DNA of 64,000 bases from Gemmatimonadota bacterium. Lineage in GTDB: Bacteria > Gemmatimonadota > Gemmatimonadetes > Gemmatimonadales > GWC2-71-9. The first letter of the stretch is position 1. Every line of letters starts with the position of its first letter. The position numbers and the translations under genes are program-made. Of this stretch, positions 2,252-57,522 are shown one piece after another. The DNA lies in NCBI GenBank assembly GCA_003221035.1, contig QHUB01000014.1, positions 1 to 64,000 on the forward strand, written 5' to 3'. The notes beneath the pieces were generated by a model that had not been told where the DNA came from, searched no databases, and was given only the letters and a program-made list of their open reading frames with translations.

Positions 2252-2297
2252 GACGGTAGGGGATGGTAGATACGACGACGGTAGAAGACGGTAAGGG
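2252..2297. repeat. Imperfect 10-base tandem repeat upstream of polX
   Basis: GACGGTA or GATGGTA occurs at 2252, 2262, 2277 and 2287, a roughly 10-base period interrupted by a 5-base insert. It fills most of the divergent gap between the TonB receptor and polX. The same kind of short-unit array recurs elsewhere in the window with different units (39665, 38165, 53012, 56477). No inverted partner is seen here. Confidence 0.6.
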
Positions 2298-2308
2298 TAC
2301 TTTATAAC

Positions 2309-4036
2309 ATGCAGAACGCCGAGATCGCACGATTGCTGGGAGACGTTGCGGACCTCTTGGAGATTTCCGCAGGCAATCCATTCAAGGTGCGCGCGTACCG
2401 CAACGCCGCCCGCACCGTCGCCGATCATCCTGACCCGATCGCCGAGCTGGTGTCGGGGGGGGAATTCGACCTGACCGACCTGGCCGGTATCGGTGGAGGA
2501 ATCGCCAAGGAAATCACCGCACTCGTCGAGACGGGCGTTCTGCCCCAACGTCAGCAGCTCATTGCCGCAATTCCGCCCGGCCTGCTCGATCTCCTGAGGA
2601 TCGCGGGCCTCGGACCGAAGCGCGTGAAGCTCTTTCACGACGAGCTGAAGGTGAACAGCGTGGCGGATCTGAAAGCGGCGCTGGATGCCGGCAACGTCGC
2701 CAAGCTGCCCGGCTTTGGCCCCAAGCTGCTCGAGAAAATTCGGGAAGGCGTGGCGGCGGCCGCGAGCGGCGACGGCCACAAGCGCATGGTGCTGCACGAG
2801 GCCGAGCAATATGCGCGGGCGATCGTGGAGTACCTGAAAGCCGGAGGAGGCATCGACGAGATCGACGTCGCGGGAAGCTTCCGCCGGCGCAAGGAAACGA
2901 TCGGCGATCTCGACATCGTCGTCACGTCATCGAAACCGGCGGCCGTGATCGAGCGCTTCGGCAAGTACGGCGAAGTCACGCATGTCGCCGCGCAGGGCGA
3001 CACGCGCTCGACCGTGCGGCTGTCGAGCGGACTGCAGGTGGACCTGCGCGTGGTCGAGCCGTCCTGCTTCGGCGCCGCGATGCAGTACTTCACGGGCTCC
3101 CAGGCGCACAACATCGAGTTGCGCAAGATCGCGCAGGCCAAAAAGCTGAAGCTGAACGAGTACGGCGTATTCCGCGGGTCGAAGTGCATTTCGGGCCGCA
3201 CCGAGCGCGACGTGTATGCCGCACTCGGCCTCGACTGGATCCCGCCCGAGCTGCGCGAGAATCGCGGCGAAATCGCGCTCGCGAAAGCGCACAAACTCCC
3301 GGCGCTGGTCACGCTCGACGACATCCGCGGCGATCTGCAGATGCACACCGACGCGAGCGACGGAAAAGCCACGCTCGCAGAAATGGTCGAAGCGGCCCGC
3401 GGCCTGCGCTACGAGTACATCGCGATCACCGACCACTCACCGCGGACGTCCATGGCCGGTCAGACGCCCGCAGAAATCCGCGCGCAATGGAAGGTGATCG
3501 ATACGCTGAACAAGGGAATGCGCGGCTTCCGCGTCCTCAAGAGCGTCGAGATGGACATTCTGGAGAGCGGCAAGCTCGACCTGCCCGACGACCTGCTCGC
3601 CGAAGCGGACTACGTCGTGGCGACAATCCATTACGGGCTCAAGCAAACCGAACGGCAGCTCACCGACCGGGTGCTCGGCGCCATCGCGAATCGCTGGGTG
3701 GATGCGATCGGCCACCCGACGGGGCGCATCGTGCCGGTGCGCCCGTCCTACCCGCTCGATTTCGACGTCGTGGCGAAAGCCGCGGCAGCCGCGAAATGCC
3801 TGCTGGAAATCAACGGCAGCGAGCGTATGGACTTGCCCGACACGCTGGCGGTGGCCGCGAAATCGCACGGCGTGCGGTTCGTGCTCTCGACGGACGCGCA
3901 CAACACGCGCGAGCTGGGATTCATGAAGTTTGCGGTCGCGGTGGCGCGACGGGCGGGACTCGAGGCCGGCGATATCGCCAACACGCGGCCGCTCCCGGAA
4001 TTCCTGAAAGGGTTACGTCGCAGCCGAAATCATTAA
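2309..4036 (+). CDS. polX: DNA polymerase/3'-5' exonuclease PolX
   Basis: Family X DNA polymerase for gap filling in base-excision repair, fused to a PHP nuclease domain. It has 575 residues, the normal bacterial PolX length. An N-terminal helix-hairpin-helix region (EIARLLGDVADLLEI near residue 5, then LAGIGGGIAKE) precedes the Pol-beta-like palm with the metal-binding pair in GDLDIVV near residue 200. The PHP domain starts near residue 341 with HTDASDGK and continues through AITDHSPR, VEMDIL, IGHPTGR and STDAHN, so the metal ligands look intact. Only a weak AAGGGT precedes the ATG, 11 bases away. The 3' end overlaps convergent rnhB by 24 bases. Confidence 0.95.
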   Translation: MQNAEIARLLGDVADLLEISAGNPFKVRAYRNAARTVADHPDPIAELVSGGEFDLTDLAGIGGGIAKEITALVETGVLPQRQQLIAAIPPGLLDLLRIAGLGPKRVKLFHDELKVNSVADLKAALDAGNVAKLPGFGPKLLEKIREGVAAAASGDGHKRMVLHEAEQYARAIVEYLKAGGGIDEIDVAGSFRRRKETIGDLDIVVTSSKPAAVIERFGKYGEVTHVAAQGDTRSTVRLSSGLQVDLRVVEPSCFGAAMQYFTGSQAHNIELRKIAQAKKLKLNEYGVFRGSKCISGRTERDVYAALGLDWIPPELRENRGEIALAKAHKLPALVTLDDIRGDLQMHTDASDGKATLAEMVEAARGLRYEYIAITDHSPRTSMAGQTPAEIRAQWKVIDTLNKGMRGFRVLKSVEMDILESGKLDLPDDLLAEADYVVATIHYGLKQTERQLTDRVLGAIANRWVDAIGHPTGRIVPVRPSYPLDFDVVAKAAAAAKCLLEINGSERMDLPDTLAVAAKSHGVRFVLSTDAHNTRELGFMKFAVAVARRAGLEAGDIANTRPLPEFLKGLRRSRNH

Positions 4037-6266: not shown

Positions 6267-7574
6267 CTACATCCTTTTCAAGAACTTGCCCATCTTGCGC
6301 ATCTGCTGGAACTGTTCCAGCAGGCGATTCACTTCCTGCACGGTCCGTCCCGAGCCCTTCGCGATCCGTAGCTTCCGATTGCCGTTCAGCAGACCGGGAT
6401 CGGCTCGCTCTGCCGGCGTCATCGAGAGGACGATCGCCTCGACGTGCTTCAAGCGCTTGTCGTCCATCGAGACACCCTGCAGCGCCTTCGCGTTGAGTCC
6501 CGGCAACAGCCCCAGCACCTGCTTCAGCGGACCCATGTTCTGCATCTGCTTCAGGGCGACCAGAAAATCCTGCAGGTCCATCCCCTTTTTCGACTTCACT
6601 TTTTGCTCGAGCCGCTTCGCAGCGTCCGCGTCGATCGTCGCGGTCGCTTTCTCGACGAGCGCGACGACGTCACCCTGACCGAGGATCCGCCCCGCCATCC
6701 GGCCGGGATCGAACGGTTCCAGCGCTTCGGTCTTCTCGCCGACGCCGATGTACTTGATCGGCACGCCGGTTACGCCGTGAATCGACAGCGCCGCACCGCC
6801 GCGCGCATCACCGTCGAGCTTCGTCAGAATCACACCCGTGAGCCCGACGCCGTCGTGAAAGCCGCGCGCGATTTTTACCGCGTCCTGCCCCGTCATGCCA
6901 TCGGCGACGAGCAGCACTTCCTTCGGCGACACCGCCGCCTTCAGTGCCTTGAGCTCATCCATCATCTCGGCATCGATCTGCAGGCGACCGGCGGTATCGA
7001 CGATCACCGTGCGGGCACGCGCAGATTCGGCCTCGCGCAGCGATCGCTTCACCAGCGCCGGCACATCCGAGTCCCGGCTCCCGGCTCCCGGCTCCGGCAG
7101 CACCGGCACGTCGATCTGCTTGCCGAGCTGCCGCAGTTGCTCTGCCGCCGCCGGGCGATAGATATCCGCTGCGACCAGCGCCGGCGCCTTCTGCTCGAGC
7201 TTCAGGCGCCTCGCGAGCTTTGCCGCGGTGGTGGTCTTCCCCGATCCCTGTAACCCGACAAGCAGAACAACCGTCGGACCTACGGAGGCGAATTCGATGC
7301 CGGCTCTGGTGCCGCCAAGCAGCGTCGCGATTTCGTCATGTACCAGCTTGACGACTTGCTGGCCGGGACTCACGGACTTGACCTGCAGCGCTCCCACGGC
7401 TCGTTCGCGGACCCGCTCGACGAAGCCGCGCGTGACCTCGAAACTCACATCCGCCTCGAGCAGGTGGCGGCGAATCTCGCGCAGCGCGTCCGTGACGTCG
7501 CTTTCCGAGAGCACCCCGCGACCTCTGAGCCGGCTCAATACGCCGGTCAGCTGCTCGGAAAGGGCCGTAAACAT
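6267..7574 (-). CDS. ffh: Signal recognition particle protein Ffh
   Basis: GTPase subunit of the signal recognition particle; targets nascent membrane proteins to FtsY and the Sec translocon. It has 435 residues with an N domain, a G domain (G1 VGLQGSGKTT near residue 108, DTAGR, TKLDGDARGG) and a Met-rich M domain ending in MRKMGKFLKRM. Between VPVLPEPG and ALVKRSL (about residues 159-168) there is an insertion, encoded by a 7-base tandem repeat at 7073-7093, at a place where Ffh proteins usually have a short acidic turn. It heads the ffh-rpsP-rimM-trmD-rplS-rnhB run. Confidence 0.96.
   Translation of the reverse strand: MFTALSEQLTGVLSRLRGRGVLSESDVTDALREIRRHLLEADVSFEVTRGFVERVRERAVGALQVKSVSPGQQVVKLVHDEIATLLGGTRAGIEFASVGPTVVLLVGLQGSGKTTTAAKLARRLKLEQKAPALVAADIYRPAAAEQLRQLGKQIDVPVLPEPGAGSRDSDVPALVKRSLREAESARARTVIVDTAGRLQIDAEMMDELKALKAAVSPKEVLLVADGMTGQDAVKIARGFHDGVGLTGVILTKLDGDARGGAALSIHGVTGVPIKYIGVGEKTEALEPFDPGRMAGRILGQGDVVALVEKATATIDADAAKRLEQKVKSKKGMDLQDFLVALKQMQNMGPLKQVLGLLPGLNAKALQGVSMDDKRLKHVEAIVLSMTPAERADPGLLNGNRKLRIAKGSGRTVQEVNRLLEQFQQMRKMGKFLKRM
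7071..7098. repeat. 7-base tandem repeat inside ffh
   Basis: CCCGGCT occurs three times head to tail (7073, 7080, 7087), followed by a partial copy. On the coding strand the unit is AGCCGGG, close to the GGAGCCGGGA core of the repeats flanking the rhomboid gene. It lies in frame in the Ffh G domain. Confidence 0.7.
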
Positions 7575-10165: not shown

Positions 10166-11310
10166 TCGATCCCTTTTCCGGCGGCGAGCCCCACGACGCG
10201 CGCGATATCCTTCCCTGTGACGACGAGCCCCTGGCGCTCGAGCTCCTGGCGGAGCTTGCGATCCAGGTCGGATCGCTGGTCCTCGAGCGCGGGCGCGGGA
10301 GGGCGGTCGGGGGCGGGCGCGGGCGGAGCCGTGCGCTCACCGCCCTCGTCCGCCCTCGTCCGCCTTCGCCCGCCCAGCAGGTCTTCGATTTCCTCACCGA
10401 ATCGCTGCAACACCGTCGCGAGATCCGGCACGGGCTCTTCAGGTCCAGCCTCTTCCTCGACCGTACCGAGGCGCAGCGCCGCTTCGACCTTCTTCCGATC
10501 GCGGATCAGCCGGTCGAGCTCGGGCGTCACTTTCGCCGTTGCCTGTGCGTGCGCGCACGCTTCGTCGAGCACGTCGATCGCCTTGTCGGGCCGCGCGCGC
10601 TCCGGGACGAAGCGATCGGTCAGCACGATCGACGCTTTGAGTGCGTCATCGGAAATGGCCACGGCGTGGTGGCGCTCGAGGCGGGGCCGGCGAGCGACCA
10701 GCACCTCCCACGTCTGAATCGCGTCCAGCTCTTCGATCGTAACCGGCTGGAAGCGACGCTCGAGCGCGGGATCGCTCTTGACCCACTTGTTGTATTCCTC
10801 GCCCGTGGTCGCTCCGACCACGCGGATGTCGCCGCGCACGAGCGCGGGCTTCAGCATGTTGGCGGCATCCATGGCGGCGCCCATCGCCGTGCCCTGGCCG
10901 ATGAGATTGTGCAGCTCGTCGACGAACAGAATGAGATTGCGGTCCGCCTGCAGCGCCTGCACGAGGCGGCGAATCCGCTCCTCGTACTGCCCGCGGAACG
11001 AAGTGCCCGCCAGCATCGAGACGTGATCGAGGCCGATGATGCGCGCGTCCTTGAGGGCGGGCGGCACGTTGCCCGAAGCGATGCGGTGCGCGAGTCCCTC
11101 GACGATCGCGGTTTTCCCGACGCCGGCTTTCCCGACCAGGGCGGCATTGTTCTTTCGCTGCCGCAGCAGGATATCGACCACGCGCGCGATTTCCTCGTCG
11201 CGGCACCGCACCGGCTCGAGATCGCCGCGGCGCGCCTGTGCGGTGAGGTCGATCCCCACCCGCGCGAGCACGTCACCGGAGTCAAACAATCCTTCGAACG
11301 GGTTCCCCAT
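10153..11310 (-). CDS. ClpA/ClpC-like AAA+ ATPase with a single AAA domain
   Basis: 385 residues. The AAA+ module (about residues 30-285) resembles the first ATPase domain of ClpA/ClpC/ClpB: Walker A GKAGVGKTA, substrate-loop region TSFRGQYEERIR, Walker B LILFVDELHNL, and ALERRF with the arginine finger, then a small helical lid. The second AAA domain that carries the ClpP-docking loop is absent, as is the N-terminal Clp repeat domain. Residues about 312-340 are a low-complexity Pro/Arg/Gly linker encoded by a G+C-rich inverted repeat; the tail has a small helical region (DRKLRQELERQGLVVTGKDI). It sits 5 bases after pilD and overlaps the HExxH gene by 13. It may be a remodelling ATPase; partners are unknown. 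Confidence 0.8.
   Translation of the reverse strand: MGNPFEGLFDSGDVLARVGIDLTAQARRGDLEPVRCRDEEIARVVDILLRQRKNNAALVGKAGVGKTAIVEGLAHRIASGNVPPALKDARIIGLDHVSMLAGTSFRGQYEERIRRLVQALQADRNLILFVDELHNLIGQGTAMGAAMDAANMLKPALVRGDIRVVGATTGEEYNKWVKSDPALERRFQPVTIEELDAIQTWEVLVARRPRLERHHAVAISDDALKASIVLTDRFVPERARPDKAIDVLDEACAHAQATAKVTPELDRLIRDRKKVEAALRLGTVEEEAGPEEPVPDLATVLQRFGEEIEDLLGGRRRTRADEGGERTAPPAPAPDRPPAPALEDQRSDLDRKLRQELERQGLVVTGKDIARVVGLAAGKGIEWAG
10291..10376. repeat. G-rich/C-rich inverted repeat in the AAA+ gene
   Basis: A G-rich arm (10291-10327, with many GGG runs) faces a C-rich arm (10340-10376) that contains CGCCCTCGTC twice in tandem (10341, 10351). It encodes a low-complexity linker, so the host protein tolerates it. 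The G-rich arm matches the canonical G-quadruplex pattern of four or more GGG runs with short loops. Confidence 0.6.
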
Positions 11311-38149: not shown

Positions 38150-38985
38150 AACTTGCGTCGGACAGTCGGACGGTCGGACCGTCGGACCGCGCCGCGCAGG
38201 TCAGTCAGACTGTCAGACCGTCCGACCGTCCGACCCCTGTGCTCGAGTCACGCGCCTACAACTTCTGGTACGGGACCAACCATGCTCTGCACGATATCTC
38301 GATGGGGATTCCCCGGCGCGCCATCACCGCCCTGATCGGCCCATCGGGCTGTGGCAAGACGACGTTCCTGCGCTCGATCAATCGGATGCACGATCTGACG
38401 CCGGGCGCCCGGCACACGGGCGAAATCCTGCTTGATGGCGCCTCGATCTTTGGGCCCGGAACGGACGTGGTGACATTGCGGCGTCGCATTGGCATGGTGT
38501 TTCAGCGACCCAACCCGTTTCCGAAATCGGTCTACGACAACGTGGCGTACGGGCCGCGCCTCAATGCGCTTGCGCACGCGCGCGAGCTGCCTGATCGGGT
38601 CGAACGAGCGTTACGGCAGGCGGCGCTGTGGGAGGAAGTGGCCGACCGCCTGCGCGAGCCAGGCACGGCGCTCTCCGGCGGCCAGCAGCAGCGCCTCTGC
38701 ATCGCGCGCGCGCTCGCGAACGAGCCCGAACTGCTGCTGATGGATGAACCCTGCTCCGCCCTCGACCCGATCGCCACGCAGCGGATCGAAGAACTCCTGG
38801 TCGAGCTGAAGAAATCGTATACCATCGTGATCGTCACGCATAACATGCAGCAGGCGGCGCGCGTGTCTGATTACACCGGCTTCTTCTACGTCGGCAACCT
38901 CGTCGAATTCGGCGTGACACAGCAGCTGTTTACGCGTCCCAGTGATGAACGGACCGAAGCATACATTACCGGAAGGTTTGGATAG
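38146..38985 (+). CDS. pstB2: Phosphate ABC transporter ATPase PstB (copy 2), with repeat-encoded N-terminus
   Basis: 279 residues from the ATG at 38146. All ATPase motifs are intact: [74 protein letters not shown], ending ITGRFG. Residues about 7-30 (Ser/Asp/Arg/Pro-rich) are not PstB-like; they are encoded by an 8-base tandem, inverted repeat (38165-38235). The recognisable domain begins at [20 protein letters not shown]. Two consecutive pstB genes could make homo- or heterodimeric ATPases; which is used cannot be told from sequence. Confidence 0.93.
38165..38235. repeat. 8-base tandem units in inverted arrangement inside pstB2
   Basis: Left arm: GTCGGACG, GTCGGACC, GTCGGACC (38165, 38173, 38181). 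Right arm: GTCAGACC, GTCCGACC, GTCCGACC (38212, 38220, 38228), whose complement carries GGTCGGAC. The arms can pair across about 23 bases. The element is in frame and codes the unusual N-terminus of PstB2. Confidence 0.8.
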
Positions 38986-38987
38986 CC

Positions 38988-39665
38988 ATGAACGTGCAAG
39001 CAACGAGTCACCGCCATTTCCACGACGAGCTCTCCGAGCTCAAGGTCGCGCTCCTCAACATGTCGGGCGAAGCGCAAGGCGCGCTGGCGACCGCCGTTGA
39101 GGCGGTCTTGACGCGCGACGGCGAAAGCGCCGCCAAGGTGATCGAGGGCGACACGGAAGTCGACACGCTGGAGCTCGAGGTCGAGGAGACCGTGATCCGG
39201 CTGCTCGCCACCCAGCAGCCGATGGCGCGCGACCTCCGCTTCCTGACGGCCGCGATGAAGATCGCCAACGACCTGGAGCGTGTGGGCGATCACGCCGTCA
39301 ACATCGCGCAGTCCGCCGAGCGCCTGCTGCGGGCGCGCCCGATCGTGCCGGAACCCGAGCTGCTCGAGATGGCGCGCCAGGCGCGCACCATGCTGGCCGA
39401 CGCCCTCGATGCGTTCGTGCGGGGTGACGCGCAGGCCGGCCGCGCGATCTGCCGCCGCGACGACAGCGTGGACGCGCTGCACCAGTCGATGTTCCGGATT
39501 CTGCTGACGCACATGATGGAGGACCCGCACATCATCGGGACCGCGATGGAGCTATTCCTGGTGAGCCGGAACCTCGAGCGTGTCGCGGATCTGGCGACGA
39601 ATATCGCGGAAGACGTCGTGTTCTTGGTGGAGGGGAAGTCGATCAAGCATCACGCGGAAGGATAG
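38988..39665 (+). CDS. phoU: Phosphate uptake regulator PhoU
   Basis: Negative regulator that links Pst activity to PhoR signalling. 225 residues, all-helical, with the two PhoU repeats and metal-site motifs ETVIRLLATQQPMARDLRF, NDLERVGDHAVNIAQSAE and, in the second half, SRNLERVADLATNIAEDVVF. The ATG at 38988 lies 2 bases after the pstB2 stop. The stop (TAG at 39663-39665) shares its last base with the first unit of a 14-base tandem repeat. Confidence 0.95.
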   Translation: MNVQATSHRHFHDELSELKVALLNMSGEAQGALATAVEAVLTRDGESAAKVIEGDTEVDTLELEVEETVIRLLATQQPMARDLRFLTAAMKIANDLERVGDHAVNIAQSAERLLRARPIVPEPELLEMARQARTMLADALDAFVRGDAQAGRAICRRDDSVDALHQSMFRILLTHMMEDPHIIGTAMELFLVSRNLERVADLATNIAEDVVFLVEGKSIKHHAEG

Positions 39666-39740
39666 GAGCCGGGATCTTGGAGTCGGGATCTTGGAGTCGG
39701 GATCTTGGAGTCGGGATTCTGGATCCTAGCTCCCGACTCC
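39665..39740. repeat. Four 14-base tandem units plus an inverted copy after phoU
   Basis: GGAGYCGGGATCTT-type units start at 39665, 39679, 39693 and 39707 (last one ends TTCT). An inverted TCCCGACTCC follows at 39731-39740 and can pair with the units. It sits between convergent phoU and the rhomboid gene and could act as a two-way terminator, though no T-run follows. The rhomboid stop codon begins at its end. A related copy occurs on the other side of that gene at 40502-40560. Confidence 0.85.
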
Positions 39741-40501
39741 TAGTAAGTTCGATACCGGTAGTACGGCGGCGGCTGCACGGGCCGCCGCTTGAGTGCGTCC
39801 TCCGACGCGAACAACTTGACGAGCACCAACCCTGCGATGAACCCACCCACATGGGCGAAGAACGCCACCCCACCCTTGTCGATCTCGCTGAGACTGCCGA
39901 GCCCGCTCAGCACCTGCAGCAAGATCCAGTAGCCGAGCATGACCCAGGCCGGAAGTGCGACGGTGGTGATGTAGATCGGCAGGATCACCAGGGTGTGCAC
40001 GCGTACCCGGGGGTAGAGCAGCAGATAGGCACCCAGGACGCCACTGATCGCGCCTGAGGCTCCCACCATGGGGACCACCGAATGCGGGCTGACGAAGACT
40101 TGCGCGGCGGCCGCCGCCGTTCCGCACAACAGGTAAAAGATCAGGAACTTCCCGTGCCCCATGACATCTTCGATGTTGTTTCCGAACACCCACAGAAACA
40201 GCATGTTGCCGATCAGGTGAAACCAGCCGCCGTGCATGAACATGGAAGTCAGCACGGTCCAGTATTTCGGGACCGCGTCCACCATGCAGATCATGCCGGG
40301 CGCGAGCTCGACGCCGCTTCCGGGCCGCACGCTATGGAGCACCTCTCCTGGGATTAGGCCCAGATCGCAGACCGACCGCGCCAAAGGCCCCTGTGCCCCC
40401 GCTCCCTGTATAAGGATGAAGGCGAGCGCGTTGGCGACGATGATTGCAACGGTGATGACGGCGGGATGCTCGGTGGGGTTTTCGTCTTTATAGGGGAACA
40501 T
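39740..40501 (-). CDS. Rhomboid family intramembrane serine protease
   Basis: Membrane protease that cuts transmembrane segments. 253 residues with six or seven hydrophobic segments; the N-terminal one is VITVAIIVANALAFILIQ. The catalytic Ser is in GASGAISGVLGAYLLLYPR (about residue 139) and the catalytic His in AHVGGFIAGLVLVKLF. WFHLIGNMLFLWVFGNNIED is the usual loop-1 and helix-2 block. It is bracketed on both sides by copies of one G-rich repeat (39665 and 40502), so it may have been inserted or duplicated as a unit; its codon use looks like that of its neighbours. Confidence 0.93.
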   Translation of the reverse strand: MFPYKDENPTEHPAVITVAIIVANALAFILIQGAGAQGPLARSVCDLGLIPGEVLHSVRPGSGVELAPGMICMVDAVPKYWTVLTSMFMHGGWFHLIGNMLFLWVFGNNIEDVMGHGKFLIFYLLCGTAAAAAQVFVSPHSVVPMVGASGAISGVLGAYLLLYPRVRVHTLVILPIYITTVALPAWVMLGYWILLQVLSGLGSLSEIDKGGVAFFAHVGGFIAGLVLVKLFASEDALKRRPVQPPPYYRYRTY

Positions 40502-44896: not shown

Positions 44897-45400
44897 ATGG
44901 ACCTCAATCGCATTCTGCGCGAGGGCTTCATCGCCGGGTGCATCGGCGCCGCCGCCGTCGCCCTGTGGTTCCTCATCGTCGATACGATCAACGGCCAGCC
45001 CCTCTTCACTCCCGCCATGCTTGGCAGCGCGGTGTTTTGGGGGGCGCCGAGTCCCGCACACGTGCTGATCGAGCCCGCCCGCATCTTTGGCTACACGATG
45101 ATCCACGTCAGCGCGTTCGTCGTCGTCGGCTGCATTTGCGCCGCGCTGGCAGCCGAAGTCGAGTACGCGCCGTCGACGTTGTTTCTGGTGGTCGTAGGGT
45201 TCTGCTTCTTCGAGGTCGGCTTCTACATCCTCGTCGCGTTGATTGCCAAGCCGCTGCTGGGCTATCTGGCCTGGTGGAACGTGGCGATTGGCAACGGCTT
45301 GGCGGCGTTGGCGATGGGCTATTATCTCTGGCGCGAACATCCGCGAATCGGCGAGGACCTGCGGCGCCATCCGCTGGGGGAAACGGAAGACGGCGAATAG
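44897..45400 (+). CDS. Unidentified small membrane protein (4 TM)
   Basis: 167 residues, four hydrophobic segments (FIAGCIGAAAVALWFLIV, MIHVSAFVVVGCICAALA, TLFLVVVGFCFFEVGFYILV, NVAIGNGLAALAMGYYLW) and a hydrophilic C-terminal tail. No family is recognised. It is divergent from the preceding membrane protein with a 48-base gap containing a TATATT at about 44882 that could be part of a promoter. The stop codon is immediately followed by a 14-base tandem G-rich repeat. Location beside the cytochrome oxidase operon is suggestive only. Confidence 0.6.
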   Translation: MDLNRILREGFIAGCIGAAAVALWFLIVDTINGQPLFTPAMLGSAVFWGAPSPAHVLIEPARIFGYTMIHVSAFVVVGCICAALAAEVEYAPSTLFLVVVGFCFFEVGFYILVALIAKPLLGYLAWWNVAIGNGLAALAMGYYLWREHPRIGEDLRRHPLGETEDGE

Positions 45401-45466
45401 GGCTGGGGCCTGGGGGCTGGGGCCTAGGGCTTACCGTTCAGGCCCCGAGCCCGAGGCCCTAGCCCC
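45401..45466. repeat. 14-base tandem G-rich units with inverted partner
   Basis: GGCTGGGGCCTGGG (45401) and GGCTGGGGCCTAGG (45415) are tandem 14-base units; the inverted partner runs 45440-45466 (AGGCCCCGAGCCC then GAGGCCCTAGCCCC). The left arm matches the G-quadruplex pattern. It joins the ends of two convergent genes; the right arm encodes the last residues of the CtaG-like protein (ARASGSGPER). Confidence 0.8.
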
Positions 45467-46548: not shown

Positions 46549-46556
46549 CGAGACCC

Positions 46557-49983: not shown

Positions 49984-52908
49984 ATGGCTGAATTATCTGA
50001 GCGGCTGCAGACCGCACTCGGGACCGCGTACCGCGTCGAGCGAGAGCTCGGCGGCGGCGGCATGAGTCGCGTATTCGTCGCGGAAGAAACGCGGCTCGGC
50101 CGGCGCGTGGTGATCAAGGTGCTGCCGCCTGACCTCGCGCTGGAAATGCGCATGGACCGGTTCAACCGGGAGATCCAGCTGTCGGCCTCGTTGCAGCATC
50201 CGCACATCGTGCCGCTGCTCGCGGCCGGTGGAGCGGACGATCTCCTGTACTACACGATGCCGTTCGTCGAGGGCGAGCCGCTGCGCGCGAAGCTGAGCCG
50301 CGATGGCGGGCTGCCGGTGCGCGACGCGGTCCGCATTCTGAAGGACGTCGCGGACGCGCTCGCGTACGCGCACGCGCGCGGTGTAGTGCACCGCGACATC
50401 AAGCCGGACAATGTCCTGTTGTCCGGCCATCACGCCGTCGTCGCCGATTTCGGGGTGGCCAAGGCGGTCAGCCAGGCCAAGACCGAAAGCGGGCTGACGT
50501 CCGTCGGGGTGGCGCTCGGCACGCCGGCGTACATGGCGCCGGAGCAAGCCGCCGGCGATCCCAACATCGATGCCCGCGCCGACATCTACGCGTTCGGCGC
50601 GATGGCGTACGAGATGTTGACCGGGCGCTCGCCGTTCGCGGGACTCGCGCCGCATCAGATGCTCGCGGCGCACATCACCGAGCCGGTCGTGCCGATCACC
50701 GACCGCCGTGCCACCGTGCCGGCGCCGCTCGCGAGCCTCGTCATGGCCTGCCTCGCGAAGAACCCGGCGGACCGTCCGCAGACAGCCGATGAGATTCTCG
50801 CGACGCTCGAAGCGATGGCGTCGCCCAGCGGGTCGGTCCCGATTACGTCGCCGGTCACGACGGTCCGGCACATGCTGCGCCGCCCGCGCAATCGCGTCGC
50901 GGCCGTCGCGGTGCTCGTCCTGGTTCTCATCACGGCAGGATGGCTTACGCTGCGCGCGCGCGGGGGCCTTGTGCTCGACCCGAATCGTGTGGCCATCGCG
51001 CCCTTCGACGTGCTTGGCGGAGGAGCGGACTTGCAGCTGTGGCGCGAAGGGCTGGTCGATGTGCTCTCGCGGAGTCTGGACGGCGCCGGCCCGCTGCGCA
51101 CCGTTTCGCCTACCCTTATCGTGCGCCGCTGGGGCAGCCGACGCCCCGACATACCTACCGCGCAGACCCTCGGGCGGGAGACCGGCGCCCGCACGGTCGT
51201 GTCCGGAATACTCATCGGCGCAGGTGATTCCGTCAGGATGCAGGCGTTCGTGCTCGACGTGCCTGGCGGGAACGTGCTCGCGGCGTTCGAGCTGCGCGAG
51301 AAAGCGGATCGGATCGACCGGCTCGCGGACTCGCTCACGGTCGCGGTGTTGCGTGAGCTCGGACGCACGCGGGCCATCGGACTCGTGCGCTCCGCGTCCC
51401 TCGGCTCGCATTCGCTGCCGGCGTTGAAGGCCTTTTTGCAAGGCGAGCAGTTTTTGCGGCGCTCCGAGTGGGATTCGGCGCTGGCCTATCATCAGCGCGC
51501 GATCGGGCTGGACTCGAGCTTCACCCTGGCCTGGAGCCACGCGGGCCAGGCGGCGGGCTGGACACACTCGGCGCAGGATTCGGTTTCGCGCACCTACAAG
51601 CTGCGCGCGGGCGCGCTCAATCACGGGCTCGCGCCGCGCGAGAGTCTCATCGTGGTGTCGGAGTCGCTCGCATCGGTCGTATACGCGGGCCCGCAGCAGA
51701 TCGCCGGCGCCTGGTGGACCTACGGCAAGCGCCTCATCGCGACGCTCGACGACGCGGTCCGCCGCTATCCGAACGATCCCGAGCTGTGGTACATGCTGGG
51801 GGACGCGCGCTTCCACGCCGGTGCACTCGCCCGGGTGTCGCCGCGAGCGAGCCTGGAGGCGTTCGACCGCGCCATCGCCCTGGATTCGGCGTTCACGCCG
51901 TCGTACGTGCACGCGGTGCCGCTGGGTCTCGAATACGGCAGCACCGAGACAGGGCGGCGATACGCGAAGGCATTCTTGGCCGCCGGCGCGATGGGGACGT
52001 ACGCCCAGAGCACTAATCTCGTCTTACAATTGCTGGATCCGTCGACGCGCGGCGCGGCGATCACCTATCTGGCCGACAGCGCCGACAGCCACCTCTTCTC
52101 GACGGTGTGGCTCGCGATCGGCCGCTGGATGGACTCGTCGGAAACTGTCGTGCAACTGGTGCGCGCCCGTGGCGAGGCCGAGAAGAAATCGGGCAACAAG
52201 TCGAATCTCAGTGTGTTCGCGCTGCCAAGCTCGCTTGCCGCGCGCGGGCACATCCACGAAGCGATGTCGCTGACGACATTCCCTTCCCTGCTGTCCCAGT
52301 ACGCGATGACGGGAGCGATCCCGGCCGACAGCGGGGCACGGATCGCGCGCGCGTGGGTGACCACTGCAACCGACGGCTTGCTGTTCGCGATGCCGCTGCT
52401 GGCGAACGCGCGCGACACGGCCGCGATCGCCGGCGCACTACGGCGGACCGACTCGATCCGCGTCCATCCGCCGCGGAACCTGCCGCCCATTGCGAAGGAT
52501 TTTTTCGGCTATGTGCTTGCGTCGCAGCGGGCCCACCTGGCCCTCGCGCGCGGTGATACCACAGCGGCGCTCCGCCTCTTCGAGGCGCGCCCGGACACTG
52601 CGGCGTTCGGCGGATCCAGTCTCGATGATCTCGTGTACGCGCAACTGCTCGTCTCGCGCAAGCGCTTCAACGAGGCCGCCGCGCTGCTCGAGCGGCCGAC
52701 GGTTGGATTCAACCCCGCCCCTACACCCGTGGAGATCCTGCGCGCGCTCCAGCGCGGCCGCGTCTATGAGCAGCTCGGCAAGAAGGACCTCGCCGTCGAT
52801 GGATACGGCTTTGTGGTCCGGGCGTGGCGCAACCCTGATCCCGCGCTCCAGCCGTATGTGGCGGAGGCACGCGCGGCGCTGGTACGGCTCGCGGCGGAAA
52901 AGCGCTAG
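49984..52908 (+). CDS. Membrane-anchored Ser/Thr protein kinase with TolB-like and TPR-like C-terminal half
   Basis: 974 residues. The kinase domain (about 10-275) is complete: glycine loop ELGGGGMSRVFVAEE, Lys in VVIKVLPPDL, catalytic HRDIKPDNVLL, VADFGVAKAV and GTPAYMAPEQAAG. One membrane helix near 305 (VAAVAVLVLVLITAGWL) separates it from an extracytoplasmic part: a TolB/adenylate-cyclase-type alpha-beta region (VAIAPFDVLGGGADLQLWRE) and many helical TPR-like repeats (about 480-960). This architecture is characteristic of Gemmatimonadota and Acidobacteriota. Targets and signal are unknown. TTATCT at about 49970 could be part of its promoter. Confidence 0.92.
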   Translation: MAELSERLQTALGTAYRVERELGGGGMSRVFVAEETRLGRRVVIKVLPPDLALEMRMDRFNREIQLSASLQHPHIVPLLAAGGADDLLYYTMPFVEGEPLRAKLSRDGGLPVRDAVRILKDVADALAYAHARGVVHRDIKPDNVLLSGHHAVVADFGVAKAVSQAKTESGLTSVGVALGTPAYMAPEQAAGDPNIDARADIYAFGAMAYEMLTGRSPFAGLAPHQMLAAHITEPVVPITDRRATVPAPLASLVMACLAKNPADRPQTADEILATLEAMASPSGSVPITSPVTTVRHMLRRPRNRVAAVAVLVLVLITAGWLTLRARGGLVLDPNRVAIAPFDVLGGGADLQLWREGLVDVLSRSLDGAGPLRTVSPTLIVRRWGSRRPDIPTAQTLGRETGARTVVSGILIGAGDSVRMQAFVLDVPGGNVLAAFELREKADRIDRLADSLTVAVLRELGRTRAIGLVRSASLGSHSLPALKAFLQGEQFLRRSEWDSALAYHQRAIGLDSSFTLAWSHAGQAAGWTHSAQDSVSRTYKLRAGALNHGLAPRESLIVVSESLASVVYAGPQQIAGAWWTYGKRLIATLDDAVRRYPNDPELWYMLGDARFHAGALARVSPRASLEAFDRAIALDSAFTPSYVHAVPLGLEYGSTETGRRYAKAFLAAGAMGTYAQSTNLVLQLLDPSTRGAAITYLADSADSHLFSTVWLAIGRWMDSSETVVQLVRARGEAEKKSGNKSNLSVFALPSSLAARGHIHEAMSLTTFPSLLSQYAMTGAIPADSGARIARAWVTTATDGLLFAMPLLANARDTAAIAGALRRTDSIRVHPPRNLPPIAKDFFGYVLASQRAHLALARGDTTAALRLFEARPDTAAFGGSSLDDLVYAQLLVSRKRFNEAAALLERPTVGFNPAPTPVEILRALQRGRVYEQLGKKDLAVDGYGFVVRAWRNPDPALQPYVAEARAALVRLAAEKR

Positions 52909-52924
52909 ATTTCGCGCCGGACAG

Positions 52925-53006
52925 GCGACCGTGGCGGAACTGGCAGACGCGCCAGCCTTAGGAGCTGGTGGGGCAACCCGTGGGGGTTCGAGTCCCTCCG
53001 GTCGCA
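52925..53006 (+). tRNA. tRNA-Leu (anticodon UAG)
   Basis: 82 bases; acceptor GCGACCG pairs with CGGTCGC and discriminator A at 53006. The D-arm begins TGGCGGAACTGG, the anticodon loop CTTAGGA gives UAG (reads CUN), the long class II variable arm is TGGTGGGGCAACCCG, and the T-arm has GGTTCGAGTCC. CCA is not encoded. It lies 16 bases after the kinase gene and is followed at once by a G-rich inverted repeat. Confidence 0.95.
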
Positions 53007-53008
53007 TT

Positions 53009-53092
53009 CTGGGGACTTGGGATTAGGGACTGGGGGTCGGGCTCTGACGACTTAGAGCTCCCCAAACCCTAGGCCCCAGCCCCTAGACCCCG
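53009..53092. repeat. 7-base-phased G-rich inverted repeat after tRNA-Leu
   Basis: Left arm units GGGACTT, GGGATTA, GGGACTG and GGGGTCG start every 7 bases from 53012. The right arm (53059-53092) is the C-rich inverse; on the minus strand it reads GGGGTCT, AGGGGCT, GGGGCCT, AGGGTTT. Both arms contain four or more G-runs with 2-4-base loops, i.e. G-quadruplex patterns on opposite strands, and they can also pair with each other. The element fills the tRNA-tig gap and could be a terminator for the tRNA. Confidence 0.85.
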
Positions 53093-53111
53093 CAGTTAGA
53101 TTTTCCACCAC

Positions 53112-54359
53112 ATGCCAGAGATTCTCGTCAAAAAAACGAAAGTCGAACCGGGAGAGGCCTCCCTTGAGGTCACGATCCCACCCGACAACGTGAAGGCCGC
53201 CGAAGCGCGCGCGACGAAGTTCTATCAGGAGCGCGCGCGCCTGCCGGGCTTCCGTCAGGGGAAAGTCCCGGCGGCCGTGGTGCGGAAGAAATTCGCCGAC
53301 GGCATCCGGGAGGAAACGCTGCGCGAGCTCGTGCAGGAGAGCTGGCGCGTGGCGCAGAAGCAGGAAGAGCTGAAGCCTATCGCCGATCCGCACATTCACA
53401 ACCTGAAATGGGAGGACGGTGCTCCCATCACGTTCGAGTTCCACGTCGAGCTCAAGCCCGAGCTGAAGCTCGAGCGACTCGGCAAGTTCAAGCTCACGCG
53501 CAAGGTTGCCGCGGTCACGGCGGCGCAGGTGGATGCGCAGCTCAACGCGATGCGCGAGCAGCGCGCGCCCTGGACCCCGATCGCGGGTGAGAAGCCGAAA
53601 CCCAAGGACCTCGTCGATGTGACGATCGCCACGCGCGAAAACGGCGAAGTGAAGGATCCGCAGCCCTTCCAGTTCGTGCTCGGCGAAGGGCGCGCGATTC
53701 CCGACGTCGAAGAGCGAGTCATGAACCTGCTGCCGGGCGAATCGGTGGACGCCACCGTTCGCTTCCCCGACGACTTTGCCGAGGAAGCGAAGCGCGGCCA
53801 GACGCGCGACATCCAGCTCACGCTCCGCGAAGTGAAGCGTCAGGAGCTGCCCGCCCTCGATGACTCATTCGCGCGCGAGATGGGCGACTTCGAATCGCTC
53901 GACGCGCTGCGCACGGCGATCACGACCGACCTCGGCAAGGAAGCCGAGCGGGAAGCGGACGCGCGCATGCGCGCCGAGCTGCTCGAGCAGATCGTGCAGG
54001 CCAACAATGTCGTGGCGCCGCGGCCGCTCGTCGAGCGCGTGCTGGGCATGTACGCACAGGCGTACGAAGTCCCCGAAGAGCGCGGCGAGCAGTTCACGAA
54101 GGAATTCCGCACCGTCGCCGAGTCGCAGGTCCGGCGCGATCTGGTGATGGATTACGTGGTCGAGTCTCAGAACCTGCGCGCCACCGAGGCGGACCTGGAC
54201 CAGAAGATTCAGGAGCTCGCCGAACGGCGCGGCATGAAGCCGGCCGAGCTGTACGCGTCGCTGGAAAAAGCCAAGCGGCTCCGCGATGTCGCGCGGAGCA
54301 TCACCGAGGAGAAGGTGTTCACCTATCTCCTGTCGCAGTCCACCGTGGAGCAAGCGTGA
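53112..54359 (+). CDS. tig: Trigger factor
   Basis: Ribosome-associated chaperone. 415 residues: an N-terminal ribosome-binding domain with the signature [18 protein letters not shown] near residue 43, an FKBP-like domain (about 150-240, with [20 protein letters not shown]), and a helical C-terminal domain. No Shine-Dalgarno is evident before the ATG. The stop overlaps the clpP GTG by 4 bases (GTGA) in the classic tig-clpP-clpX order. Confidence 0.95.
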
Positions 54360-54988
54360 CGACGAGCGAAAGCCATATCTATCCGCCCTACATCATCGAA
54401 CGCTCGAGCCGGGGCGAGCGCACCTACGACATCTTCAGCCGCCTGCTGATGGACCGCATCGTGTTCCTCGGCACCTCCATCAACGACGACGTCGCGAACA
54501 TCATCATCGCCCAGCTCTTGTTCCTGGATGCCGACAATCCCGAGCGCGACATCTACCTCTACATCAACTCACCGGGCGGCATCGTGTCGTCCGGAATGGC
54601 GATCTACGACACCGTGCAGTTCCTGCGCGCGCCGGTGAACACGATCTGCATGGGGATGGCCGCCTCGATGGGCTCGTTTCTTCTGGCCGCCGGCCGCAAA
54701 GGGAAGCGCTCCGCCCTGCCGCACGCCAGGATCATGATGCACCAGCCCTCGGGCGGCACCCAGGGCACCGCGGCGGACATCGAGATCCAGGCCAAGGAGA
54801 TCCTGTTCCTGCGCCGCAAGCTCAACGAGCTGTACGCCAAGCACACCGGCAAGACGGTCGAGCAGATCGAGAAGGACATGGACCGGGATCGCTTCATGTC
54901 GGCCGAAGAGTCGAAGGAGTACGGGCTAGTGGATCACGTCATTTCGAACTACGAGGAAATCAAGGAAGACGGGAAGGCCAAGAAGTGA
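54356..54988 (+). CDS. clpP: ATP-dependent Clp protease proteolytic subunit
   Basis: Serine peptidase that forms the ClpXP/ClpAP barrel. 210 residues: [20 protein letters not shown] at the N-terminus, [17 protein letters not shown] (oxyanion-hole region), catalytic Ser in [15 protein letters not shown], catalytic His in [12 protein letters not shown], and the Asp in the [10 protein letters not shown] region. The GTG start overlaps the tig stop; clpX follows after 43 bases with its own AGGAAG. Confidence 0.97.
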
Positions 54989-55031
54989 CGCACTTGCGCC
55001 GCTAGGCACGCGTTCCCATACTAGGAAGACG

Positions 55032-56282
55032 ATGTCGCACGATAAACACCTCCGCTGCTCATTTTGCGGCAAATCCAAGGATTCGGTCCGGAAGTTCATC
55101 TCCGGCCCGTCGGTCTACATTTGCAATGAGTGCATCGCGCTTTGCAATGAGATCCTGGCCGAGGATGAAGAGCGCGAAGTCGCCGAAGCGATCACGCAGG
55201 TCCCCATCCCGTCGGAAATCAAGGACGTGCTGGACCAGTACGTGATCGGGCAGGACCGCGCCAAGAAGACCCTCGCGGTCGCCGTGTACAACCACTACAA
55301 GCGCATCAATTCGCACTCGGGCCGGGACAACGAGGTGGAGCTCGACAAGAGCAACATCCTCCTGATCGGTCCTACAGGTGTCGGCAAAACGCTCCTGGCG
55401 CAGACGCTCGCCCGCATTCTGGACGTGCCGTTCACGATTGCCGACGCGACCACCCTCACCGAAGCCGGCTATGTCGGTGAAGACGTAGAAAACATTCTCG
55501 TGCGCCTGCTGCAGGCTGCCGACTTCAACGTATCCGAGGCCGAGCGGGGCATCGTCTATATCGACGAGATCGACAAGATCGCGCGCAAGTCTGAAAACCC
55601 CAGCATCACGCGCGACGTCTCGGGCGAAGGCGTACAGCAGGCGCTGCTCAAAATCCTGGAGGGCACGGTTGCCAGCGTGCCCCCTCAGGGTGGCCGCAAG
55701 CATCCGCAGCAGGAGTACATCCAGGTCAACACCAAGGACATCCTCTTCATCTGCGGCGGCGCGTTCGACGGGCTCGAGAAGATCATCGAGTCGCGGACCG
55801 GGCGGCGGCAGATCGGCTTCACCAAAGAAGAGGTGGCCGAGGGCGTCGCGGCCAAGGTCAAGAAGAATCCGTTTGGGGACGTGGAGCCGGACGACCTGCT
55901 CCGCTACGGGCTCATTCCCGAGCTCGTGGGCCGCCTGCCGGTCACCGTCCCGCTCGATGCCCTCGACGAAGACGCGCTCGTGAAGATTCTCACCGAGCCC
56001 AAGAACGCGCTCGCCAAGCAGTACCAGAAGCTGTTCGACCTCGAGGACGTGCGGTTGACGCTCGAGAAGGAAGCGCTGCGCGCAATCGCGCAGAAGGCGA
56101 TGAAGCGCGGCACGGGCGCGAGAGGGCTGCGCGCCATTCTCGAAGAGATGATGACCGAGATCATGTTCGAGCTGCCCAGCCGCGATGACGTTCGCGAGGT
56201 CGCGATCACGGCGGAATGCGTCACATCCGGCCGCGCCCCACTGCTCGTGACCGAGCGCCCACGGCAGAAGAAAGAAGCCTGA
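55032..56282 (+). CDS. clpX: ATP-dependent protease ATPase subunit ClpX
   Basis: AAA+ unfoldase of ClpXP. 416 residues: zinc-binding domain [14 protein letters not shown] with ICNECIALC, Walker [16 protein letters not shown], Walker [14 protein letters not shown], the pore-loop region after [16 protein letters not shown], the IGF loop IGFTKEE for ClpP docking, and the sensor II area [16 protein letters not shown]. Sequence is typical in length and order. The stop (56280-56282) overlaps the probable engB start in a CTGA arrangement. Confidence 0.98.
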
Positions 56283-56899
56283 CCGACCCGAAGTTCATCG
56301 GCTCCTTCCCTCGAGCCGACACGCAGCTCGATCCCCCGCTCCCCGAAGTCGCATTCCTCGGCCGATCGAACGTCGGCAAATCGTCGCTACTCAATGCCCT
56401 TGTGGGTCGGAAGATCGCGAAGACCTCCGGAACGCCGGGCAAGACTCGGGCGCTGAACGTGTTCCTCATCGAAATCGGGAGAAGGGAGAAGGGAGATGTA
56501 CATCTCCCTCCTCCCATCTCCCTGTACTTCTTGGACCTCCCCGGCTATGGCTATGCGCGAATCGGCAAAACCGAACGCACCGCGTTTCGCGGGCTGCTCA
56601 AGCATGCGCTCCGCCGCGAGCGCCTCCGCGGCGTCGTGTGGCTCCTCGATATCCGCCACCCACCCTCGGTTGACGATCGAGCCATGCAAGAGGTCATGGT
56701 TGATGCGGAGATCAATGTCCTCGCCGCATTGACCAAGAGCGATAAGCTTTCCCGGGGCCAGCGGGAGACCCGCGAGCGGGAGCTTGTCGCGGAGCTGGAG
56801 CTGCCGGAAGACCAACTGATCGTGACGAGCGCGAAGACGGGGGAAGGGATTGTGGACTTGCGGGAAGCTATTGCCGGGTTAGTCGGAGCGGCCGAATGA
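56216..56899 (+). CDS. engB: Ribosome biogenesis GTPase YsxC/EngB
   Basis: Essential GTPase for 50S assembly. G1 [17 protein letters not shown]2 [15 protein letters not shown]3 [12 protein letters not shown]4 [10 protein letters not shown] and G5 VTSAKTGEG are all present. The frame opens at ATG 56216, but its first 21 residues (Arg-rich) are only clpX overlap; homologues begin near [10 protein letters not shown], which is preceded by CTG at 56279 overlapping the clpX stop (CTGA). The real start may therefore be CTG. Residues about 88-103 ([15 protein letters not shown]) are an in-frame insertion encoded by a hairpin repeat (56477-56522), between the strand after G2 and the G3 motif. Confidence 0.93.
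56477..56522. repeat. 7-base tandem hairpin repeat inserted in frame in engB
   Basis: GGGAGAA, GGGAGAA, GGGAGAT start at 56477, 56484 and 56491; the last joins an 18-base perfect palindrome (GGGAGATGTACATCTCCC, 56491-56508) and the inverse units continue to 56522. Its length keeps the EngB reading frame open. Same architecture as the intergenic repeats in this window. Confidence 0.85.
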
Positions 56900-57522
56900 G
56901 ATGGAGGTCGGCACGTCTGCACGTCGGCACGATACTGCTGTGTCTTGCCGTCGCGCCGATGTGCAGACTTGAAGCGCAGGATACCGTCCCGAAGAGTTAC
57001 GGCACATTACGCCGCGACGACATCACCGTGCAGTTCAGCAATGAGACCGTCGAGATCCAGGTGCTCCCGCTCGAGGAGCAGGTGATCCGGCTGCTCGCGC
57101 CCGATACCTATCGTTCGCTCAGCCAGCTGATGTACAGCCGCGCCGCGGACATCGCCGACGCCGCGCGGCGCGGCGGGACGGAACACCCGACCCTCGTCAT
57201 GGTCACGTTCCTCGGGGTGGTGCCCCAGGCGCGCTTCAATCCCGACGAGCTGAACATCACGAGCCGGGGCCGCTTATTCCGGCCCATCGGGATCGTGCCT
57301 CTGTCACCGACGTGGAGCTCGTTTCAACTGGATGCCCGCCAGCAGGCGGCGGCGATCTACCTGTTCGAGCCGGGGATCAGCGTGCGTGAGCAGCTGACCG
57401 TCACGTATGATGGACTGTCCAGTGACGCGTGGAGCCGCTCGCTGCGATTGCTCGACCAGGAACGCGCCCGCGTCAGGGCGCGCGCGCCGCCGGAAGTGAA
57501 ACACGATTCTGGAGTCCCGTAG
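56896..57522 (+). CDS. Unidentified secreted protein
   Basis: 208 residues with a signal peptide (residues 1-27, HVGTILLCLAVAPMCRLEAQ). The mature part is mixed alpha/beta with no membrane segment: DDITVQFSNETVEIQVLPLE, HPTLVMVTFLGVVPQARFNP, GRLFRPIGIVPLSPTWSSFQ. I recognise no family; similar small secreted proteins of unknown role are common in Gemmatimonadota. The ATG overlaps the engB stop by 4 bases. The signal-peptide region is written by 8-base repeats (56907-56930, inverted copy at 56961). The 3' end overlaps the convergent ApbE-like gene by 50 bases. Confidence 0.65.
   Translation: MRWRSARLHVGTILLCLAVAPMCRLEAQDTVPKSYGTLRRDDITVQFSNETVEIQVLPLEEQVIRLLAPDTYRSLSQLMYSRAADIADAARRGGTEHPTLVMVTFLGVVPQARFNPDELNITSRGRLFRPIGIVPLSPTWSSFQLDARQQAAAIYLFEPGISVREQLTVTYDGLSSDAWSRSLRLLDQERARVRARAPPEVKHDSGVP
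56907..56968. repeat. 8-base tandem units with inverted copy in a signal-peptide region
   Basis: GTCGGCAC, GTCTGCAC, GTCGGCAC occur head to tail at 56907, 56915 and 56923; GTGCAGAC at 56961-56968 is the exact complement of the middle unit. Same style as the 8-base units in pstB2. They code for residues 4-25 of the secreted protein. Confidence 0.75.

What the first reader, a model, noticed from the sequence alone, without database searches (positions are those of the whole stretch)
2252..56968. Dispersed short-unit tandem/inverted repeats with one architecture but different unit sequences
At least nine loci show tandem units of 7 bases (7073, 53012, 56477), 8 bases (38165, 56907), 10 bases (2252, 10341) or 14 bases (39665, 45401). 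Six of the nine (38165, 39665, 45401, 53012, 56477, 56907), and the G-rich/C-rich pair at 10291-10376, are clearly followed by an inverted copy. Unit sequences differ, so this is not one transposed element; the shared feature is the layout and, for the 7- and 14-base sets, a G-run every 7 bases. Several arms match the canonical G-quadruplex pattern on one or both strands. That suggests a local process (slippage or template switching at hairpins or quadruplexes) that keeps creating them, or an undescribed repeat class.
Basis: partly seen in the sequence, partly recalled or inferred. Interest (0 to 1): 0.85.

Follow-up and report, generated by a model that had tools for sequence, protein, structure and literature searches.

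The report
Seven-base-repeat hairpins swapping at gene ends
Soil bacteria of the Gemmatimonadota carry many short DNA hairpins built from repeats of seven (sometimes eight) bases, mostly placed right after the ends of genes, and related species have different hairpins or none at the same spot, which makes this a fast-changing member of a little-studied kind of bacterial repeat.

Summary
Six window loci combine tandem units with an inverted copy; of 200 dinucleotide shuffles 196 gave none and 4 gave one. A hairpin search blind to periodicity, on about 1.09 Mb from ten genomes of this Gemmatimonadota genus, finds 38 hairpins with periodic arms (period 7 in 26, 8 in 10, 10 in 2), G-rich arm first in 36 of 38.

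Units are not all different: they fall into about ten families (GGTGTCN, GGATTGC, GGAATGC, GGGAGNN, GTCGGACN and others) that recur at unrelated loci and are amplified in some species and absent from others. At 8 of 10 orthologous sites examined, different species carry different families; empty versions exist at most sites. Most copies outside coding sequence abut a stop codon; one lies in frame inside EngB.

G-rich heptamer repeats with inverted pairs are known from Xanthomonas and Nostoc, so the kind is known. New are the phylum, the multi-family repertoire, site-by-site replacement and clean empty sites. The copying mechanism is inferred. A Y1 (RAYT) transposase or RVT_1 reverse transcriptase is not needed in every genome that has them.

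The parts
38157..38234 (.). Octad hairpin (GTCGGACN)n / inverted, directly after the stop codon of the ABC-transporter gene 37373-38149 and running in frame into the N-terminus of the next ABC gene (38146-38985)
   Evidence: empty in G001, G004, G006, G008; other octads in G003 and G005
39665..39743 (.). 14-mer (double heptad) hairpin between the convergent genes phoU-like (38988-39665 +) and rhomboid (39740-40501 -), overlapping both gene ends
   Evidence: (z -2.8); gap of 4-17 nt in G002, G003, G005, G007, G008, G009; GGTGTC hairpin plus an extra gene in G001; about 400 nt of other sequence in G004 and G006
45400..45466 (.). Heptad hairpin GGGCCTN between convergent genes; supplies the C-terminus and stop of the CtaG gene (45431-46210 -)
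   Evidence: (z -5.1); empty in G004 and G008, other heptads in G009, G006/G007
53009..53088 (.). Degenerate heptad hairpin (GGGGACT/GGGATTA type) directly after tRNA-Leu (52925-53006)
   Evidence: (z -3.0); other units at the same place in G002-G006
56477..56522 (+). Heptad hairpin (GGGAGAA)n in frame inside engB (56216-56899), at the turn before the LDLPGYG motif; adds 14 residues
   Evidence: absent from 7 of 7 readable genus mates, an insert at the same turn in G020
56907..56971 (+). Octad array (GTCGGCAC/GTCTGCAC) and inverted arm flanking the hydrophobic core of a predicted signal peptide (gene 56896-57522)
10291..10375 (.). Period-10 G-rich/C-rich hairpin inside the AAA-ATPase gene 10153-11310 (-); doubtful member, may be low-complexity coding DNA
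7072..7095 (.). TCCCGGC x3.4 tandem (no inverted copy) inside ffh (6267-7574 -), at a small insert relative to the solved Ffh 7o5b

Best explanation
These are heptad-repeat hairpins: a dispersed, high-turnover class of short non-coding repeats. Shown: arms are arrays of a 7-nt (sometimes 8-nt) unit; units come from a limited repertoire of families shared across the genus; families are amplified in some genomes and absent from others; copies sit mostly 0-13 nt after a stop codon or after a tRNA, sometimes in frame in a protein; sister species hold a different family or nothing at the same site. Inferred: a new copy starts when a strand end at a gene end or another tolerant spot copies a few units from an existing array elsewhere (microhomology template switching at GG-rich units); the strand then folds back and copies itself, giving the inverted arm; slippage in seven-base register changes the unit number. 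Survivors are those that do no harm, in the very short spacers of a genome about 93% coding; there they form a strong RNA stem on both strands that may mark or protect transcript 3' ends, without the T-tract of an intrinsic terminator.
For: Arm autocorrelation at lag 7 is 0.53-0.68 while most other lags lie at 0.2-0.4 (lags 8 and 16 reach 0.46-0.65 and 0.45-0.57 in the coding sets, lag 14 follows 7), in hairpins found without using periodicity. Families recur: 17 identical unit pairs among 25 elements against 0.57-0.79 expected. Genome-specific amplification (matches): GGTGTCN triple 17 in G002, 15 in G001 and G003, 0 in G007; GGATTGC 11 in G005, 5 in G002, 0 in six of ten genomes including G009, which is 93.2% identical to G002 in the compared region; GGGAGAA hairpins at 7 loci in G000, 3 in G008, 1 each in G003 and G005, 0 in six; read-backwards controls 0 in all three searches. 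Loops differ in length (3-28 nt) and sequence among 11 GGTGTC copies, two of which look orthologous, so arms, not a core, recur. Site replacement. Stop-codon abutment: 16 of 20 co-directional copies have an edge within 13 nt of a stop, 4 within 13 nt of a start; in the 12 gaps with slack on both sides 11 are within 13 nt of the stop against 5.1 expected (0 of 100,000 simulations). Fold-back step: at 56907 the left array, reversed, holds a 17-nt exact match to the G007 orthologue, which lacks the left array.
Against: No copying event was seen; the donor of no copy is identified. The GGGAGAA family matches across its loop (88% over 68 bp to two other loci), which looks more like ordinary transposition of a whole element. 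Variants inside the arms are hardly mirrored (0.867 in register against 0.832 with units permuted, and the register was chosen as the best), which speaks against arms being recent fold-back copies of finished arrays. Fold-back alone does not explain the G-first order (36 of 38). The spacer after tRNA-Leu folds strongly (z -2.8 or lower) in only 5 of 9 parsed genomes, so a stem there is not obligatory.
Confidence: 0.45

Rival explanations
1. Purely local origin: each hairpin is made on the spot from neighbouring host sequence by slippage and quasi-palindrome template switching, and unit likeness is coincidence or composition.
For: At 56907 the loop is the host signal-peptide core and the left array matches the neighbouring host sequence of G007 over 17 nt in inverse orientation. 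At 38157 two empty sites (G001, G008) keep the 10-bp palindrome GACGGCCGTC. All filled 38157 and 56907 sites have period 8, as if one array drifted.
Against: The same units recur at unrelated loci far above chance, with genome-specific amplification.
Confidence: 0.2
2. A non-autonomous transposon (MITE- or REP-like) moved by a host-encoded transposase, with fast-decaying arms.
For: Clean empty sites; GGGAGAA copies align over their whole length at 78-88%; Y1 transposase genes occur in 9 of 10 genus genomes.
Against: PF01797 is absent from G007, which has such hairpins, and from G026, G029 and G036, which have 162-220 G-run heptad matches (those counts can include poly-G). Loops are not conserved in the GGTGTC family. 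I saw no shared terminal tag or regular target duplication in the aligned sites, although genus mates are too diverged (77-88%, one pair 93%) for a firm test.
Confidence: 0.25
3. Arms are added to both 3' ends of a break by a repeat-adding activity, then joined, with the loop as junction.
For: G-rich arm first in 36 of 38 (p 5e-9), non-periodic hairpins 13 to 9, shuffled 14 to 13; idiosyncratic loops; variants not mirrored between arms.
Against: RVT_1 is found in 3 of 41 genomes and not in G000; no candidate enzyme or template was identified; 2 of 38 genus hairpins and one in G029 are C-first.
Confidence: 0.08

Closest known systems
G-rich heptamer repeats GGGNATC of Xanthomonas and GGGGA(C/T)T of Nostoc (Rehm et al. 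2015, PMC4692102; I read parts 1-5 of 8)
   Same: Seven-base units with a G run; dispersed; mostly intergenic, close to stop codons; inverted pairs in 70 and 75 cases in two Xanthomonas genomes. One other-family genome here (G040) has GGGGACT/GGGATTA arrays without inverted arm in the 60 kb seen, as in Nostoc.
   Different: [quoted passage not shown] here about ten families coexist, many have only GG, and sites change family or are empty between species.
P6b stem-loop of the Nostoc tRNA-Leu (UAA) intron, Class I/II repeats (PMC4476775; abstract, outline and passages seen)
   Same: A hairpin built of repeats (the passages name a seven-nucleotide repeat), in which one repeat class was repeatedly and independently replaced by another at one site.
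   Different: One site inside a group I intron; here many sites, mostly after stop codons.
TAACTGA heptamer direct repeats of Beggiatoaceae (PMC4679880; passages seen)
   Same: Intergenic heptamers; its introduction reports heptanucleotides as the most abundant long simple repeat in most genomes and a slippage idea based on the polymerase contact length.
   Different: One fixed unit, direct repeats, one inverted case only, placed before start codons.
REP palindromes of RAYT type (PMC3733652; listing only)
   Same: Short dispersed palindromes; one with GTAG ends is also present in this genus.
   Different: One conserved palindrome rather than heptad arrays.
Rickettsia palindromic elements (recalled, no call)
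   Same: Palindromic DNA in frame inside proteins, as in EngB here.
   Different: Longer, sequence-conserved elements.

Membership tests
Xanthomonas/Nostoc G-rich heptamer repeats | tandem units of 7 nt | tested here: met
   26 of 38 periodic hairpins have period 7, 10 have 8, 2 have 10
Xanthomonas/Nostoc G-rich heptamer repeats | four G3 runs able to form a G4 | tested here: not met
   3 of 8 window loci match; common families GGTGTCN and GGATTGC have GG only
Xanthomonas/Nostoc G-rich heptamer repeats | mostly intergenic and near stop codons | tested here: met
   28 of 38 not wholly inside a called gene with about 93% coding; 16 of 20 co-directional copies within 13 nt of a stop
Xanthomonas/Nostoc G-rich heptamer repeats | one consensus unit GGGNATC or GGGGAYT | tested here: not met
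   about ten unit families
Nostoc P6b-like heptad hairpins | repeat hairpin replaced by another repeat class at one site | tested here: met
   8 of 10 sites hold two or more unit families across species, one of the 8 with units that differ by one base
Nostoc P6b-like heptad hairpins | part of a group I intron | tested here: not met
   only a tRNA in the Rfam scan of the window
RAYT/REP elements | Y1 (RAYT-type) transposase in the genome | tested here: inconclusive
   20 of 41 genomes; absent in G007, which has the hairpins
RAYT/REP elements | one conserved palindrome with a terminal tetranucleotide tag | tested here: not met
   arms are variable heptad arrays
MITE | constant terminal inverted repeats plus target-site duplication | tested here: inconclusive
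   no regular duplication seen in alignments of 77-93% identical genomes; GGAG-family copies align full length
Intrinsic terminators | G+C hairpin followed by a T run | tested here: not met
   none of the 16 terminator-like sites in 38000-57200 coincides with an element (that scan allows loops of 3-8 only); 1 of 38 periodic hairpins has 7 or more T in the next 12 nt

The most novel reading that the evidence does not exclude
Bacteria of this group have an end-repair process that adds short G-rich repeat units, drawn from a small inherited repertoire, to both 3' sides of breaks near gene ends before joining them; each event leaves a G-first heptad hairpin, like two short telomere-like tracts fused head to head.
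Probability: 0.08. Interest if true: 0.9.

Novelty: new variant of a known kind. Interest (0 to 1): 0.55.

Why it matters
Heptamer repeats have been noticed in unrelated bacteria for decades without a known way of spreading. This genus offers what those cases lacked: clean empty sites, several unit families competing for the same sites, one 93%-identical genome pair with different contents, and an in-frame insertion in a conserved GTPase. Resequencing of close strains could show how such repeats are born, why the period is seven and why the G-rich arm comes first.

Tried and rejected
RAYT/Y1 transposase as the necessary mover: searched in 41 genomes, no match with presence of the repeats. Reverse transcriptase (RVT_1) as the source: 3 of 41. 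Intrinsic terminators: no coincidence with elements. G-quadruplex as common feature: 3 of 8. Known RNA families: only tRNA-Leu in the window. Mirrored variants as a signature of arm-to-arm copying: weak. In one search two of the eight stretches (L071:14594-14686 and L078:6330-6425) were given with wrong coordinates, are not elements and are not used. In one search the G003 spacer after tRNA-Leu was not parsed and is missing (9 of 10 genomes). In one search one of the 26 period-7 elements was dropped (G006, orthologous to the G007 copy). In one search (register test) only elements with period 7 or 8 and three or more whole units were used: 28 of 38. An earlier count gave 6 of 9 folded spacers and gaps of 0-18 nt; on recount these are 5 of 9 and 0-15 nt. 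The distances used were copied by hand. Literature: (gemmatimonad, G-quadruplex, repeat) found 0 papers; the listings (20 of 123; 8 of 263) show no paper on such repeats in this phylum, but most of each hit list was not seen.
Full report
What and where. The window is contig C93 of a 3.36-Mb MAG (G000). Nine further genomes of the same genus were on hand (G001-G009), about 77-88% identical to each other over the compared region, except G002-G009 at 93.2%.

Observation. Six loci in the window show tandem units followed by an inverted copy; 200 dinucleotide shuffles gave one such locus in 4 and none in 196. I then searched hairpins without reference to periodicity. At a net arm score of 15 the G000 sample (564 kb, window included) has 15 against 1-3 in five shuffles, G002 (261 kb) 16 against 0-3, and stretches of eight other genus members (142 kb, chosen for synteny and therefore biased) 10 against 0-1. 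In the window alone the same finder at score 14 gives 4 against 0-4 in ten shuffles, so the large sample carries the claim. The arms are self-similar at lag 7 (0.53-0.68) while most other lags lie near 0.2-0.4; the coding sets also show lag 8 (0.46-0.65) and its multiple 16. With a slightly lower threshold 38 of 62 hairpins have periodic arms: 26 with period 7, 10 with 8, 2 with 10. The G-rich arm is first in 36 and second in 2 of the 38; among 24 non-periodic hairpins it is 13 to 9 (2 ties), in shuffled sequence 14 to 13. Since the reverse complement keeps this order, it is a property of the element and not of the strand.

Families. Consensus units of the period-7 and -8 elements fall into about ten families: GGAATGC, GGATTGC, GGTGTCN, GGGCCTN/GGGGCTN, GGGAGNN, GGTGCGT/GTGCGTC, GTCCAAT, and with period 8 GTCGGACN, GGGCGGTT and a few singletons. 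Among 25 period-7 elements 17 pairs have identical units against means of 0.57 and 0.79 under two nulls (maxima 7 and 4 in 1000 rounds). Genome-wide pattern searches in the ten genomes give, as numbers of matches, for three GGTGTCN units 17 (G002), 15 (G001), 15 (G003), 11 (G009), 6 (G005), 6 (G008), 3 (G000), 2 (G004), 1 (G006), 0 (G007); for GGATTGC 11 (G005), 5 (G002), 3 (G004), 1 (G003) and 0 in six, G009 included; GGGAGAA hairpins occur at 7 loci in G000, 3 in G008, 1 each in G003 and G005, and 0 in six. The read-backwards controls of these three searches are all 0. Families are therefore amplified genome by genome. The GGGAGAA copy at G000:C73 aligns over its 68 bp, loop included, at 88% with two other G000 loci and at 71-83% with others, while 11 GGTGTC copies (five genomes, chosen because they matched one copy; two look orthologous) have loops of 3-28 nt without evident likeness.

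Site turnover. I looked at ten sites in the genus. 38157: GTCGGACN in G000, G002, G009, other octads in G003 and G005, empty in G001, G004, G006, G008, unclear in G007. 39665: G000 only among those with a short gap (4-17 nt in G002, G003, G005, G007, G008, G009); G001 has a GGTGTC hairpin and an extra gene, G004 and G006 about 400 nt of other sequence. 45400: GGGCCTN in G000, GGCGTGC in G009, GGAATGC type in G006 and G007, empty in G004 and G008. 53007, after tRNA-Leu: different units in G000, G002, G003, G004, G005 and G006 (those of G000 and G006 are alike), a different palindrome in G001 and G008, none in G007 and G009. 56477: G000 only, absent in 7 of 7 genus mates with readable engB. 56907: GTCGGCAC type in G000, GGGCGGTT in G002, G006, G009, empty in G003, G004, G005, G008. 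G000:C13: GGGAGAA in G000, GGAATGC type in G001, G005, G006, GGTGCGT in G007, one arm in G008, none in G002, G004, G009. G000:C73: G000 only, none in seven mates. L122:7403: GGTGTC in G002, GGAGTC type in G003, GAAATGC type in G006; G000, G001, G007, G008, G009 have 0-15 nt between the two gene ends. L122:13762: GGATTGC in G002, GGAATGC in G000, one-armed octads in G008 and G009. So 8 of 10 sites hold two or more unit families in different species (at L122:13762 the two differ by one base), and 2 are filled in one species only. The period tends to be kept at a site (8 at 38157 and 56907, 7 elsewhere).

Position. Of the 38 periodic hairpins 10 lie wholly inside a called gene and 28 do not, in sequence about 93% coding by my own gene caller. 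Of 20 between co-directional genes, 16 have an edge within 13 nt of a stop codon and 4 within 13 nt of a start; in the 12 gaps with room on both sides, 11 lie within 13 nt of the stop against 5.1 expected by random placing in the same gaps (0 of 100,000 simulations). All 5 between convergent genes have an edge within 13 nt of a stop; two follow tRNA-Leu. I did not measure the same distances for the non-periodic hairpins.

Inside a protein. The 56477 hairpin is in frame in EngB and adds 14 residues at the turn between the two strands before LDLPGYG; the solved YsxC/EngB 1sul has a 14-residue gap there. Of 33 aligned EngB rows (two of them the same locus) only G000 and G020, a different genus of the family, carry an insert there; the G020 insert is again a G-first hairpin, of GGGAGCA type. 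Two independent gains are the simplest reading, not a proof.

Local step. At 56907 the arms flank the host's signal-peptide core. Reversed, the G000 left array contains CGTGCCGACGTGCAGAC, which G007 has on the right-hand side without any left array, while G000's own right arm differs from it by two bases. This is what fold-back copying of neighbouring sequence leaves. G002 and G009 differ at this site by a paired change that keeps the stem.

Mechanism. See Best explanation. PF01797 (Y1) is found in 20 of 41 genomes and is absent from G007, which has the hairpins; RVT_1 is found in 3 of 41 and not in G000. Function is open: stems are strong (z -2.8 to -8.1 for the six true elements folded), but none of the 16 terminator-like sites in the region coincides with an element, 1 of 38 has 7 or more T in the next 12 nt, and the spacer after tRNA-Leu folds strongly in only 5 of 9 genomes.

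Range. The G-run heptad pattern is met in 39 of 41 genomes of the order with counts from 0 to 774, poly-G included. In small samples of other genera, periodic hairpins were 0 in G024 (60 kb), 0 in G040 (60 kb, which has long GGGGACT/GGGATTA arrays instead), 1 in G029 (67 kb, C-rich arm first) and 0 in 120 kb of three genomes with low counts.

Known or new. Rehm et al. (PMC4692102) describe G-rich heptamers with inverted pairs in Xanthomonas and Nostoc; Kaasalainen et al. (PMC4476775) describe repeated replacement of one repeat class by another in one Nostoc hairpin. The present case joins both behaviours genome-wide in another phylum, with many families. I file it as a new variant of a known kind.

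Noticed in passing
L122:10539-10566: GTAGGGGCGCAGCATGCTGCGCCCCTAC, a perfect palindrome of REP type with GTAG ends; the capped listing shows matches of about 30 nt at many places over the genus.
   Followed up: partly
L124:4100-4236 and the spacer after tRNA-Leu in L069 and L075: A second, sequence-conserved palindromic element of about 100-130 nt (GGACATGCAAAG...), present at L124 and at the tRNA-Leu site of G008 and G001.
   Followed up: no
L072 and L073 ends: Two G002 contigs end on either side of the 45400 site, as if such hairpins broke the assembly; counts from draft genomes may be too low.
   Followed up: no
window:39665 site in L071, L074, L077: G006, G001 and G004 have about 400-465 nt of other sequence at this site, by eye coding for a low-molecular-weight phosphatase/ArsC-like protein (label recalled, no search).
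   Followed up: no
G008:C28 and G008:C123: Two EngB genes in one MAG, 80% and 76% identical to the window's protein: a paralogue or contamination.
   Followed up: no
window:42473-42518: Tandem GGGCGGCGAA units inside a gene without inverted copy.
   Followed up: no
L212 (G009:C39): At the L122:7403 site G009 has a 15-bp tandem duplication across the junction of two genes instead of a hairpin.
   Followed up: no
L093:2352-2477: Long (GGCGGC...ACTGGA) repeat with a glycine-rich look, period 6-36, picked up by the detector but not a heptad hairpin.
   Followed up: no
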